From contig CAMAWF010000029.1 in NCBI GenBank assembly GCA_945861895.1, positions 1 through 33,690 on the forward strand: a stretch of 33,690 nucleotides of DNA. The letters run 5' to 3'. The position numbers were made by a program, and so were the translations under genes. Shown here one piece after another: positions 24,838 to 28,176 of the stretch. Position 1 is the stretch's first letter. Each line of letters starts with the position of its first letter. The notes below the pieces were generated by a model, which saw only the letters and a list, made by a program, of their open reading frames with translations, searched no databases and was not told the DNA's origin. Source of the DNA: Rhizobium sp. Q54 (lineage in GTDB: Bacteria; Pseudomonadota; Alphaproteobacteria; Rhizobiales; Xanthobacteraceae).

Positions 24838-25677
24838 CTACAACATCTCCAGCGGCCGCGCCTTGGATGGCGGCGGAAATGCCCGGTCGAGCGCGGCGAG
24901 GTCCTGCGCTGTCAAATGCAGATTGAGCGCGGCAAGGTTCTCCTCGACGTGTACCGGCGTCGATGCTTTCGGGATGACGATAACGCCCTCCTGCCGCAGC
25001 AGCCAGGCAAGCGCCACCTGGGCCGGCGTGGCGTTGCGGCCGGCTGCGATGCTGCGCAATTGTGCGTGTCCAAGCATGCGGCCCTGTTCGATCGGCGAAT
25101 AGGCCATGATCGGGATGCGGCGCCGGCTGCACCAGGGCATCAGATCGAATTCGATGCCGCGGCGGGTAAGATTATAAAGCACCTGATTGGCCGCAACGCC
25201 GCCGCCGCCGGGAATGTCCCGCAGTTCCTGCATGTCCGAGATGTCGAGATTGCTGACGCCCCAGTGCAGAATTTTATCCGCGCTCATCAAAGTCGCGAAC
25301 GCCTCCAGTGTGTCTTGCAATGGTGGGCGGCCGCGCCAATGCAGGAGATAAAGATCGATCCGGTCGGTCCGCATCCGCCGCAGGCTGCGCTCGCAGGCCG
25401 CAATCGTCCCCCGCTTTGAGGAGTTTTCCGGCAGCACCTTGCTGACAATGAAAAGGTCATCGCGGCGGCCGGCGATCGCTTCGCCGACGATCTCCTCGGC
25501 TTCGCCGTCGCCATACATTTCCGCGGTGTCGATCAGAGTTATTCCGCGCTCGAGGCCGAGACGTAGCGCGGTAACTTCGCCGCGGCGTTGCGGCGCCTGC
25601 TCGCCCATGCGCCAGGTGCCCATTCCGAATGTGGGGATTGCTGCGCCCGAGGGCAGCGTGGTGGTTGGCATTGCCAT
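24838..25677 (-). CDS. aldo/keto reductase
   Basis: This is a 279-residue NADPH-dependent (beta/alpha)8-barrel reductase. All four catalytic residues are visible: D50 and Y55 in LIDTAEMYGDG, K80 in FIVSKVLP and H113 in LYLLHWRG. IRWGVSN-like sequence appears as LHWGVSNLD, and IPIMAYSPIEQGRML with IPKAST further on marks the cofactor pocket. It would reduce an aldehyde or ketone intermediate, or oxidise a hemiacetal, in the cytoplasm. Its start lies only 17 bp after the stop of the nucleotidyltransferase-fold gene on the same strand, so its transcription probably depends on that gene's promoter unless an internal one exists. Confidence 0.92.
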   Translation of the reverse strand: MAMPTTTLPSGAAIPTFGMGTWRMGEQAPQRRGEVTALRLGLERGITLIDTAEMYGDGEAEEIVGEAIAGRRDDLFIVSKVLPENSSKRGTIAACERSLRRMRTDRIDLYLLHWRGRPPLQDTLEAFATLMSADKILHWGVSNLDISDMQELRDIPGGGGVAANQVLYNLTRRGIEFDLMPWCSRRRIPIMAYSPIEQGRMLGHAQLRSIAAGRNATPAQVALAWLLRQEGVIVIPKASTPVHVEENLAALNLHLTAQDLAALDRAFPPPSKARPLEML

Positions 25678-25694
25678 ATCGAGGAAATCGCCTG

Positions 25695-27044
25695 CTAGTT
25701 TCGCAAACTGGATGGCCGCTTCTTCAGTAACTTTGGAATATCCATCGTTTTGACAAGGACTGCGCCCGGCTCTTCGATTGGATATGACAGATACTTAGTG
25801 CGGGCAATTTGTTCGATTGTGGACCTATTTTTGAGAAATATTTCGATTTTACCTTTTTGATCCAGACCGTCCGTCCCGAAATGATCGTCAAGGGCTTCGC
25901 GACTTATTGCGCATTGAACGGACCCGCCCATGGTTTTTCCGGCAAATGTAATAACGTGGCGGCTAAAGTCATAGCGCGGAGGCGCGTTGTCGAAGGTCAA
26001 ATCAATCCCCGTGATAAAGTCGGGTCGGCGATCAATGACCTTTAGAATTCCGTCGCGTACAAGAGGAGTCAGTTCACTCATGCCCTCGATGAGGAGACGA
26101 CGCCATTCCTTGCCTTTTTGGTAGGCTTCTTCCCATGCAGTTCTCAATTCGTGCGGGCGTTTTTGCCAAAGAAAGCCAAGCAAGGCTTCGGCCTGTTGAA
26201 TATCTTTGTCGCGTTTTGCGGCTCCCTCGGGCCGGCGCCGAGAAATAATCAACTTGTGAACGGCATATCGCTGGGGGGCGGGAACGTTCACGTAAACTCC
26301 CGCATCGTGCAAAATGACGGCAGGCTCAGGTTCATAAATGAGGAAATCAAGAAATCGAAGCGGTTGTGCGCCCGTTTGCAGCGCTGGAAGCGGCTGCGGC
26401 GTATCGGTGTCGGGGCCTTCGTTCGGCGTAAGAAAATCGACGCGCAATCCGCTCTTTGCAGTGTAGCTAGTAACACGCCCTTTATGAATGGTCGGCACAG
26501 GACGAAATGTGCTGTCGGCTTCTTTAAGAACATCAAGTATGGGAGGCGTCCGGTCTTTGGCCGCCACGGATATATTTTTGAATTGGGCAATATCGACGTC
26601 GCCCGTTTGGAGAATTCGAACAGGAAGTTTTACTCCCAGCATCGCAGAATAAGTTTGGTACGCTACAGTTCCGACGAGGACTCCGCGGAGGCGAAAGACG
26701 CCAGCTTTCGCCAAGGCTGCGACAATGTCTCCGATCTCTGGAATTGGGCGAGGCAGGGCGAACGATCGCACAAGCGTAGAGACGAGCGCTCGACGTTCGC
26801 GCTCATCGTCGCGAGCGTTCTTGTGATGGGCAATTTTCTCCAAGAGCTCGGGTGTTTCCGGGCCAACGTATTTTTGGGCGCGGCCCGCTTTGGAAGAGGA
26901 TTGAAAATACCAGTACCGGCGGCCCTTGATTGTTTTCGGTATGAACACGCCGTCTGGGGGGAATGATGCGCCAAATGCCGCCGATGCGCAGCGTTCCACC
27001 AGTTCGGCATACGTCGTTTGCGTTATGAGCGGCGGTGCTGGCAT
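25695..27044 (-). CDS. GSU2403-like nucleotidyltransferase-fold protein with DUF1488-like C-terminus
   Basis: This is a 449-residue cytoplasmic protein. An N-terminal module (about 30-62, FIPKTIKGRRYWYFQ to AQKYVG) leads into a nucleotidyltransferase-fold domain. GVLVGTVAYQTYSAMLGV (121-138) precedes the acidic pair D149/D151 in TGDVDIAQF, with a probable third carboxylate D203 in LRVDFLTPNEG. This matches NTP_transf_8 (GSU2403 family). FLDFLIYEPEPAVILHDAGVYVNVPAPQRYAVHKLIISRR (231-270) is the helical extension. From about 346 the sequence changes to IDLTFDNAPPRYDFSRHVITF and CAISREALDDHFGTDG, resembling the small stand-alone DUF1488 domain, so I read it as a fusion. The target of nucleotidyl transfer is unknown; related folds occur in toxins and phage defence. 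Base composition is AT-richer than in the neighbours, and the ATG has no ribosome-binding site. It interrupts a row of catabolic genes. Confidence 0.8.
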   Translation of the reverse strand: MPAPPLITQTTYAELVERCASAAFGASFPPDGVFIPKTIKGRRYWYFQSSSKAGRAQKYVGPETPELLEKIAHHKNARDDERERRALVSTLVRSFALPRPIPEIGDIVAALAKAGVFRLRGVLVGTVAYQTYSAMLGVKLPVRILQTGDVDIAQFKNISVAAKDRTPPILDVLKEADSTFRPVPTIHKGRVTSYTAKSGLRVDFLTPNEGPDTDTPQPLPALQTGAQPLRFLDFLIYEPEPAVILHDAGVYVNVPAPQRYAVHKLIISRRRPEGAAKRDKDIQQAEALLGFLWQKRPHELRTAWEEAYQKGKEWRRLLIEGMSELTPLVRDGILKVIDRRPDFITGIDLTFDNAPPRYDFSRHVITFAGKTMGGSVQCAISREALDDHFGTDGLDQKGKIEIFLKNRSTIEQIARTKYLSYPIEEPGAVLVKTMDIPKLLKKRPSSLRN

Positions 27045-27056
27045 TGGAAGCCATTT

Positions 27057-27144
27057 AATTATACGCGTTTCGCAAATTGCGTATAACTCAGCTTGGTGAC
27101 CGAGTCAAACTAAGTTATACGCAAATTGTAGTTTGCGTATAATT
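27057..27144. promoter_or_regulatory. four-site inverted repeat containing two mirror-image promoters
   Basis: Four related 10-bp sites occur: AATTATACGC (27057-27066), GCGTATAACT (27079-27088), AGTTATACGC (27113-27122) and GCGTATAATT (27135-27144). The outer pair and the inner pair are exact complements. Minus strand: TTATAC (27086-27081), 17 bp, TATAAT (27063-27058), leading to the nucleotidyltransferase-fold gene start at 27044. Plus strand: TTATAC (27115-27120), 17 bp, TATAAT (27138-27143), pointing into the end of the dioxygenase gene. The centre holds CTTGGTGACCGAG, a further short hairpin. Confidence 0.7.
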
Positions 27145-27165
27145 CATAGGCTGCTCCAGTGCCCC

Positions 27166-28176
27166 TCATGACTCCGCAATGCCCTCCACCGGCGGCGTGC
27201 CGTGGGTGTGGAACGACTCGATGGTCTTGAGGCCCCAGGCCTGGCCCTTCTTGCGCTCGTCCTCGCTCCAGGTGATCGGTTTCCAGTCGGGCGCGAGGAT
27301 CAATCGCGCGCCGGCGCAGGCGACCTCGACGCGGTTGCCGCCCGGTTCATAGACATACAGAAAAAACGTCTGCTGCACGGCGTGCTTGTGCGGGCCGGTT
27401 TCGATATAGACGCCGTTTTCCAAAAATATATCGGCGGCGCGCAGCACGTCCTCGCGGGAATCGAGCGCATAGGTGATGTGATGGAAGCGCCCCTTGGCGC
27501 CGGTGTGGTCGCGCGTATAGGCGAAGTCGTAGCTCTTGTTGGTGGCGGTCATCCACATGCCGGCTTCCGTGCCGTCATTGAGCACGATCTGCTCGGTCAG
27601 CCGGAAGCCGAGATAGCGCTCGAAGAATTCGCGGTTGGCCTTGATATCCACCGCCAGCCCGTTGAAATGATCGAGCCGGCGCACATTGACGCCGCGGGCG
27701 GGAAATTTCTGCGCTTGATTCTTCAGCGCAGGTTTCTTGTCCGGCGGCGCGTCGTACCATTCGGTCTCGTAGTAAAGCTCGATCACGTGGCCATCGGGAT
27801 CCTTGCAGATAAATGTCTTGCCGTGACCGAGATCGCCGTCGCTCCAGCCGGTATCGAAGCCCGAGCCCTTGAGCGCGGCGGCACGGCGGTCCAGCGCCTG
27901 CGGCGAGCGCGTGCGGAACGCCACATGCGCCATGCCGGAGGTCTTCGCGGCGGTGAGCTTGAGGCTGTAGCGCTCATAGTCGTCCCAGCCGCGCAGATAG
28001 ATGCTGTCGCCTTTCTCGCCGCTTTGCGTCATCCCCATCACATCGATGAAAAACTTCGCGCTGGCGTCGAATTTCGGCGTCAGCAGCTCAAGATGGCCAA
28101 GATGCGCGATGTCGAGAATGGGTTCTGCTTGCACGGGAGACTCGCGGCGGTTTGCTGGCGAGCGGTATAAGGACAT
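27166..28176 (-). CDS. VOC-family extradiol ring-cleavage dioxygenase (catechol 2,3-dioxygenase-like)
   Basis: This is a 336-residue two-domain type I extradiol dioxygenase. It opens a catecholic ring next to the hydroxyl groups using Fe(II) or Mn(II) and O2. The N-terminal VOC module (about 24-138) ends FICKDPDGHVIELYYE. The catalytic C-terminal module has metal ligands H170 (RRLDHFNG), a histidine at 232/233 (RFHHITYAL) and E284 inside the extradiol signature YVYEPGGNRVEV (274-285). The usual second-shell H265/Y-type residues appear as PHKHAVQQTF and YVYEP. The ATG at 28176 has no ribosome-binding site. Homologues begin close to PILDIAHLG, so a GTG at 28134 is a credible alternative. The gene heads the minus-strand row and is divergent from a binding-protein gene. 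The natural substrate is not readable from sequence. Confidence 0.9.
   Translation of the reverse strand: MSLYRSPANRRESPVQAEPILDIAHLGHLELLTPKFDASAKFFIDVMGMTQSGEKGDSIYLRGWDDYERYSLKLTAAKTSGMAHVAFRTRSPQALDRRAAALKGSGFDTGWSDGDLGHGKTFICKDPDGHVIELYYETEWYDAPPDKKPALKNQAQKFPARGVNVRRLDHFNGLAVDIKANREFFERYLGFRLTEQIVLNDGTEAGMWMTATNKSYDFAYTRDHTGAKGRFHHITYALDSREDVLRAADIFLENGVYIETGPHKHAVQQTFFLYVYEPGGNRVEVACAGARLILAPDWKPITWSEDERKKGQAWGLKTIESFHTHGTPPVEGIAES

What the first reader, a model, noticed from the sequence alone, without database searches (positions are those of the whole stretch)
27057..27144. Quadruple inverted sites holding two mirror-image promoters with identical 17-bp spacers
Four copies of an ATACGC/GCGTAT core are arranged as two palindromes that are also complements of each other. 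Each palindrome contains TTATAC-17 bp-TATAAT, one facing the nucleotidyltransferase-fold gene and one facing the opposite way, antisense to the dioxygenase gene. The minus promoter's -10 box ends only 13 bases before the ATG and no ribosome-binding site is present, which points to leaderless translation. A regulator bound to the palindromes would cover both the -35 and -10 boxes, and the plus-strand promoter could make an antisense RNA.
Basis: seen in the sequence. Interest (0 to 1): 0.7.

Follow-up and report, generated by a model that had tools for sequence, protein, structure and literature searches.

The report
Self-controlled nucleotidyltransferase gene with private operators
Two DNA palindromes in front of an uncharacterised nucleotidyltransferase gene look like the switch by which the protein turns off its own gene, and many relatives carry such palindromes at the same place but with a different DNA 'password' in different subfamilies.

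Summary
The four inverted cores are real: two 28-bp palindromes at 27059-27086 and 27115-27142, the only exact copies in the 3.77-Mb genome. The "mirror-image promoters" are a by-product of the palindrome arms. Aligning 62 relatives on the gene-proximal palindrome points to another promoter: TTGAC, 17 bp, TATAC, with the -35 between the palindromes and the -10 in the proximal one (clear in the window's own clade, weaker outside it). Leaderless translation and an antisense RNA find no support.

The arrangement belongs to the gene (NTP_transf_8, "GSU2403 family"). A strict pair of matching palindromes lies upstream of 46 of 94 non-redundant relatives, against 0 of 940 shuffles; a strong single palindrome in 71 of 94. 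The letters differ by subfamily (TATAC-KCA, TATTACC, TATAAGA, TTACCCCACA, TGCCACG...), while position and symmetry recur. Operator divergence follows protein divergence, with a suggestive extra signal in the N-terminal helix and three-stranded sheet.

Best explanation: a one-gene module in which a nucleotidyltransferase with intact catalytic residues carries its own DNA-binding head and represses its own promoter. It works like AbiE type IV toxin-antitoxin operators but is not a sequence member of that family. Binding, repression and enzymatic target are inferred, not shown.

The parts
27059..27086 (-). Proximal palindrome (operator O1), TTATACGC-N12-GCGTATAA; its left arm on the - strand holds the inferred -10 box
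   Evidence: position and symmetry recur in homologues
27115..27142 (-). Distal palindrome (operator O2), TTATACGC-N12-GCGTATAA, just upstream of the inferred -35 box
   Evidence: centre-to-centre distance to O1 is 56 bp
27103..27108 (-). Inferred -35 box TTGACT, between the two palindromes
   Evidence: TTGAC match peaks at offset -21 from the palindrome start in 62 aligned loci (mean 2.23 of 5; mean over offsets 1.26; next best 1.56)
27080..27085 (-). Inferred -10 box TATACG, inside the left arm of O1, 17 bp from the -35 box
   Evidence: read; position inferred
25695..27044 (-). Gene for a 449-aa protein: N-terminal helix plus three-stranded sheet (1-80), NTP_transf_8 nucleotidyltransferase (104-308), DUF1488 (350-429)
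26853..27044 (-). Codons 1-64: H5-27, E33-39, E42-51, E54-62; candidate DNA-reading head
   Evidence: fold; divergence tracks the operator, suggestive

Best explanation
The two palindromes are operators for negative autoregulation. The 449-aa NTP_transf_8 protein, as a dimer, binds each palindrome through its N-terminal helix/three-stranded-sheet head. Bound O1 covers the -10 box and start point, bound O2 sits against the -35 box, and the protein shuts its own sigma70-type promoter (TTGACT-17-TATACG) until it is diluted, titrated or released. The nucleotidyltransferase domain keeps its catalytic residues, so the repressor is also an enzyme; its activity is probably one that must be kept low, as in nucleotidyltransferase toxins. 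Shown here: the palindromes, their recurrence and position, the promoter alignment, co-divergence with the protein, conserved catalytic residues. Inferred: binding by the encoded protein, repression, dimerisation, the enzyme's activity and target.
For: Strict pair of palindromes sharing a half-site in 46 of 94 non-redundant homologues, against 0 of 940 Markov shuffles and 2 of 190 other gene starts in the same loci; both of those are mis-oriented copies of this gene. Strong single palindrome in 71 of 94, against 17 of 940 and 16 of 190. Set fetched afterwards: 10 of 14 single, 5 of 14 pair. Half-sites lie upstream: 205 in 140 nt upstream, 2 in 300 nt downstream, 4 inside the genes, over 64 loci. 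No neighbour gene of 70 aa or more is shared by more than 6 of the loci compared, and no small downstream frame (25-150 aa) by more than 6 of 79 loci, so no co-inherited separate regulator was seen. No other site in the genome with fewer than 3 mismatches. Pairs of homologues at 60% identity or more share the inner half-site in 247 of 321 cases, pairs at 40-60% in 140 of 1022. Operator distance tracks residues 1-30 beyond the rest of the protein (partial r 0.208, 0 of 200 permutations) and weakly 31-64 (0.106, 12 of 200); the other six regions lie between -0.056 and 0.07. The two top columns are 37 and 55, in strands 1 and 3. Promoter alignment: 13 of 62 loci have at least 4 of 5 TTGAC matches at offset -21, against a mean of 1.1 and a maximum of 4 at other offsets. 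Catalytic G125, D149, D151 in 65-66 of 68 rows and D/E at 203 in 68 of 68. Model mean pLDDT 89.9.
Against: No binding or expression data. The Mantel permutations ignore phylogeny, so they are too optimistic, and eight regions were tested without correction. Columns 296, 180 and 229 in the enzyme part score almost as high as 37 and 55. In a locus bootstrap the N-terminal segment has the largest weight in only 54% of draws, and over the full identity range segment 193-256 (0.74) comes close to 1-64 (0.98). The N-terminal domain has no significant structural match, and its separate model is only moderate (pLDDT 78.9, pTM 0.51). 23 of 94 homologues fail the strong-single test and 48 of 94 the strict pair test; many failures are imperfect copies by eye, but a few (for example L033, L059) show nothing convincing close to the start, and several families show one palindrome only. 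Outside the TATAC(K)C clade (41 loci) the -35 peak is weak (1.93, next 1.78), and the best match gives a 17-bp spacer in 21 of 62 loci.
Confidence: 0.75

Rival explanations
1. The palindromes act as RNA hairpins in the 5' leader, bound by the protein or controlling translation.
For: Perfect stems close to, or overlapping, the start codon in several families. P-dist scores as a terminator-like stem on the - strand. Symmetric arms exceed independence at the variable base (34 of 45; about 23 expected from the column totals). Outside the window's clade the promoter position is less certain.
Against: The favoured -35/-10 places the start near the dyad of O1, so only half of O1 would be transcribed, and O2 lies upstream of the -35. 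Arm-to-arm spacing is exactly 12 nt in 43 of the 45 TATAC(K)C palindromes, as for a rigid dimer. In 11 of these 45 the arms differ (T with C, or G with A), which breaks an RNA pair but leaves two acceptable half-sites (near-identical L010 and L011 both counted).
Confidence: 0.09
2. A separate host transcription factor, not the encoded protein, binds the palindromes.
For: Nothing here shows directly which protein binds. Co-divergence with the neighbouring gene could partly be plain linkage (one search shows it falls with protein identity, as linkage also would).
Against: Operators change with the protein across scattered contexts with no widely shared neighbour gene, and no other site with fewer than 3 mismatches exists in the genome. 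A host factor would have to change specificity each time the gene moved. Half-site identity falls off with this protein's identity.
Confidence: 0.12
3. The palindromes are ends or target sites of a mobile unit, with the protein as a recombination factor.
For: Patchy distribution (54 of 297 genomes sampled from the order), low GC (0.53 against 0.60), 463 plasmid records, broken copies.
Against: Half-sites lie upstream, 205 against 2 downstream, so they do not bracket the gene. A promoter overlaps them. Mobility of the gene does not require these sites.
Confidence: 0.03
4. One reading: two divergent leaderless promoters with an antisense RNA against the dioxygenase.
For: The literal strings exist, and the window's own leader has no clear Shine-Dalgarno.
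Against: Right-arm TATAAT in 7 of 68 homologues; TTATAC is a poor -35; another promoter position is favoured; Shine-Dalgarno-like motifs enriched in homologues.
Confidence: 0.04

Closest known systems
AbiE type IV toxin-antitoxin (AbiEi antitoxin/autorepressor, AbiEii DUF1814 nucleotidyltransferase); PMC3985639 (passages seen), PMC7319586 (abstract and outline seen)
   Same: A nucleotidyltransferase-fold gene under a promoter with inverted repeats bound by its own operon's product; repeats placed at the promoter boxes; one AbiEi homologue (Rv2827c) uses two sets of inverted repeats.
   Different: No antitoxin gene seen; the proposed DNA-binding part is fused to the enzyme; no profile similarity to AbiEii (hhalign probability 0.3%, shallow alignments); no AbiEii Pfam match listed for 45 members; operators change from subfamily to subfamily.
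Pfam NTP_transf_8 (PF12281) / NCBI 'GSU2403 family nucleotidyltransferase fold protein'
   Same: Direct member (E 4.5e-69); NCBI name on plasmid relatives.
   Different: No paper on the family turned up; the one paper naming GSU2403 lists it once in an RNA-seq table as a hypothetical protein (passage seen).
Arm-type DNA-binding domain of tyrosine integrases (for example 3jtz)
   Same: Three-stranded sheet plus helix (recalled for the integrase domain).
   Different: Foldseek E about 1, rank 43: a lead only, not a match.

Membership tests
NTP_transf_8 (PF12281) | Score above the curated cut-off | tested here: met
   233.2 bits against cut-off 26.3, residues 104-308
NTP_transf_8 (PF12281) | Nucleotidyltransferase catalytic residues G[TS]...DxD plus a third acid | tested here: met
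   G125, T126, D149, D151, D203 in the window protein; G125 66, T/S126 65, D149 65, D151 66 of 68 rows, D/E203 68 of 68. That these are the catalytic residues is recalled knowledge of the fold.
AbiE type IV toxin-antitoxin | Toxin belongs to DUF1814/AbiEii (PF08843) | tested here: not met
   No PF08843 in the family list for 45 members at E up to 1; none in the own genome; hhalign with 13 AbiEii proteins, probability 0.3% (shallow alignments, so low power)
AbiE type IV toxin-antitoxin | Separate AbiEi antitoxin gene in the operon | tested here: not met
   No neighbour of 70 aa or more shared by more than 6 loci, no small downstream frame shared by more than 6 of 79 loci; annotated neighbours of six plasmid copies differ (that gene table is incomplete)
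AbiE type IV toxin-antitoxin | Inverted repeats in the promoter bound by the operon's own product | tested here: inconclusive
   Repeats and promoter geometry present; binding not testable here
Self-regulated sigma70-type promoter | -35 and -10 at about 17 bp overlapping the operator | tested here: met
   peak at 17 bp in 62 loci, strong in 21 TATAC(K)C loci (2.81 of 5), weak in the other 41 (1.93, next 1.78); TTGACT-17-TATACG in the window. Self-regulation itself not tested
Leaderless transcript | Transcript starts at or near the start codon and no ribosome-binding site | tested here: inconclusive
   The window's leader has no clear Shine-Dalgarno; homologues are enriched for one (31 of 68 against 144 of 849); start point not measurable here

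The most novel reading that the evidence does not exclude
NTP_transf_8 genes are single-protein, self-silencing nucleotidyltransferase modules (toxin- or defence-like) whose DNA-binding head and operator pair co-diversify into many mutually blind specificity groups. Each group would behave like a phage immunity group: a resident copy silences an incoming copy of its own group, while entry into a naive cell gives a burst of enzyme.
Probability: 0.3. Interest if true: 0.8.

Novelty: new variant of a known kind. Interest (0 to 1): 0.6.

Why it matters
It gives a handle on a widespread family for which my searches found no dedicated paper: a predicted operator, promoter and DNA-binding head for many members, testable by one gel shift. 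If binding is confirmed, the family is a one-gene counterpart of nucleotidyltransferase toxin-antitoxin operons. It would also be a large natural set of repressor/operator pairs with different specificities, useful for learning how such a head changes its DNA code and as orthogonal regulators.

Tried and rejected
Mirror-image promoters: rejected on conservation. RNA hairpin: disfavoured by promoter position and fixed spacing. Mobile-element ends: disfavoured, almost no downstream half-sites. Empty-site test: I looked for the dioxygenase next to the aldo/keto reductase without the gene; the 29 dioxygenase loci held (of 47 other places matched) contain neither partner within the DNA held, 1.5 kb each side and less for L142, so no empty site was found and nothing follows. 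A first palindrome scan was too lax (88 of 195 control gene starts positive) and was replaced by the stricter one. Insulation by selection: five same-genome pairs at 26-60% identity have different operators by eye (one of the five has a degenerate operator), but so do 882 of 1022 pairs at 40-60% identity overall, so this is no evidence for selection. AbiEii kinship: not seen at profile level. Solved relatives by sequence: best E 0.075, not credible. Foldseek, full model: nothing at E 0.001 or better; 2gpi (DUF1488, prob 1.0) and weaker nucleotidyltransferases 5uvd and 7ljn. Phage records: no match. PADLOC and NCBIfam: none for this protein. Conserved small partner downstream: none beyond one syntenic group of 6 loci.

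Rows dropped: one search took 117 loci with a usable upstream and collapsed them at 90% identity to 94. One search used 14 of the 21 places; left out were the own gene, four genomes already seen and two fragments; of the 14, L213 is identical upstream to L018. One search listed 47 rows; two with C/G at the variable base were left out. Searches used 63 of 68 loci (L031, L046, L102, L180, L184 left out because the arm register was unclear); one search kept all 68. One search used 62 of 68 (palindrome under 28 bp, or only the distal one found). One search used 79 of 94 loci for the downstream frames. L074 and L077 were mis-oriented and corrected.

Full report
What is there. The window at 27057-27144 holds two 28-bp palindromes, each TTATACGC-N12-GCGTATAA, at 27059-27086 and 27115-27142. 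They are the only two exact copies in the 3.77-Mb genome held, and no other site has fewer than 3 mismatches. They sit directly upstream of a - strand gene (25695-27044) whose protein matches Pfam NTP_transf_8 (104-308) and DUF1488 (350-429). NCBI calls plasmid relatives 'GSU2403 family nucleotidyltransferase fold protein'.

Relatives. A pattern-based scan of named genomes gave 50 loci; of genomes sampled from the order 54 of 297 have a match (E up to 0.001), and from the phylum 45 of 398 (E up to 1e-8). Reading the DNA upstream showed the same architecture in most, but with a different sequence in different subfamilies: GTTATAC-KCA in the long DUF1488 type, GTTATTACC in Mesorhizobium-like members, GTTATACTG in Rhizobium, GTTATAAGA, GTTACCCCAC, GTTATACAACA, GTTACTATA, TTGCCACG, TGTGCANCA, TGTTCAACA and others. 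With one fixed test, a strict pair of palindromes sharing half-sites is present upstream of 46 of 94 non-redundant homologues, against 0 of 940 shuffles and 2 of 190 other gene starts (both really this gene, mis-oriented); a strong single palindrome is present in 71 of 94, against 17 of 940 and 16 of 190. A set fetched afterwards with the Pfam model (14 of its 21 places) gave 10 of 14 single and 5 of 14 pair; one member, L213, is identical upstream to L018. Half-sites lie upstream (205 in 140 nt), hardly downstream (2 in 300 nt) or inside (4), over 64 loci. The tests rest on symmetry and position because the letters themselves are not conserved.

Promoter. Aligning 62 loci only on the start of the proximal palindrome, the match to TTGAC peaks at offset -21 (mean 2.23 of 5; mean over all offsets 1.26; next best 1.56), which is 17 bp from the TATAC of the left arm. 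At that offset 13 of 62 loci have 4 or 5 matches, against a mean of 1.1 and a maximum of 4 elsewhere. The peak is strong in the 21 TATAC(K)C loci (2.81) and weak in the other 41 (1.93, next 1.78); the best match gives a 17-bp spacer in 21 of 62 loci and 16-18 bp in 32. In the window this is TTGACT 27108-27103 and TATACG 27085-27080 on the - strand. O2 therefore abuts the -35, and O1 covers the -10 and start. The start should fall near 27072, the dyad of O1, about 28 nt before the ATG.

DNA or RNA. In the TATAC(K)C clade the spacing between arms is exactly 12 nt in 43 of 45 palindromes, and 11 of 45 have unlike arms. Against this, symmetric arms (34 of 45) are commoner than independence predicts (about 23), which relatedness or pairing could explain. 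Together with a promoter inside the array the balance is for a DNA site read by a dimer, not a leader hairpin.

Who binds. No neighbour gene of 70 aa or more is shared by more than 6 loci; the largest groups are a dioxygenase upstream (6 loci, window included) and an aldo/keto reductase downstream. No small downstream frame is shared by more than 6 of 79 loci. Operator identity follows protein identity with a sharp change near 60%: 247 of 321 pairs at or above it share the inner half-site, against 140 of 1022 pairs at 40-60%. Given the rest of the protein, the extra signal lies in residues 1-30 (partial r 0.208, 0 of 200 permutations) and weakly 31-64 (0.106, 12 of 200), with columns 37 and 55 on top but 296, 180 and 229 close behind. 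One search agrees in direction (weight 0.76 for 1-64, the only segment whose 5% bootstrap bound is above zero) but not decisively (largest in 54% of draws). The model (pLDDT 89.9) puts a helix and a three-stranded sheet there. No solved structure matches that head convincingly. I infer that it is the DNA-reading part.

Enzyme. G125, D149, D151 and an acid at 203 are kept, so the domain is probably active. What it modifies is unknown. Closest analogue: AbiE, where AbiEi binds inverted repeats in the promoter of its own operon and AbiEii is a predicted nucleotidyltransferase. Membership fails on two tested features: the family differs and no separate antitoxin gene was seen. 'Works like' remains open; 'is an AbiE' is not supported.

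Mobility. The lowest-GC stretch of the window lies on the gene (0.53 against 0.60); the gene is patchy, has matches in 463 plasmid records and in no phage record, and has broken copies. The palindromes travel with it but do not bracket it. Recent duplicates keep their operator (99.7% and 93.7% identity), while diverged copies in one genome have different ones, as expected from identity alone.

Literature. In one search no paper held NTP_transf_8, PF12281 or COG5397; six held DUF1488 and one GSU2403 (listing only, except that the GSU2403 passage was read: one line of an RNA-seq table). The NCBI family name gave 0 papers. Two further combined searches gave 5 papers and none, with no title about this family (listings only). 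The library is open-access only, so absence there is weak evidence.

Noticed in passing
25695-27044: The gene has GC 0.53 against 0.60 for the window; the lowest-GC 1350-nt stretch of the window lies on it, pointing to recent acquisition.
   Followed up: partly
24838-28176 and L004, L019, L020, L022: A catechol 2,3-dioxygenase-like gene upstream and an aldo/keto reductase downstream keep company with the gene in these loci; 29 other dioxygenase loci have neither in the DNA held.
   Followed up: partly
window residues 350-429: A DUF1488 domain is fused to part of the family only (21 of 45 members).
   Followed up: no
L039, L040, L044; L180/L187, L184/L191: Copies of the gene with short or split reading frames.
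   Followed up: no
L177 and L181 (plasmid pRetIE4771e): Two copies 99.7% identical on one replicon, with identical operators.
   Followed up: no
27115-27142: The distal palindrome is scored as a terminator-like stem on the - strand (3 G-C pairs, weak T run); it could end dioxygenase transcripts.
   Followed up: no
26803-27054: An out-of-frame ATG at 27054 opens an 83-aa frame overlapping the start of the gene.
   Followed up: no
L111 and L087: Distant homologues share nearly the same half-site (TATACGTTA) and the same residue K at position 37 and Q at 57: possible convergent recognition.
   Followed up: partly
L169, 21-1818 and 4215-4806: On an Agrobacterium pAt plasmid the gene sits between annotated VapBC and integrase genes and a RelE/ParE-type toxin-antitoxin pair.
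   Followed up: no
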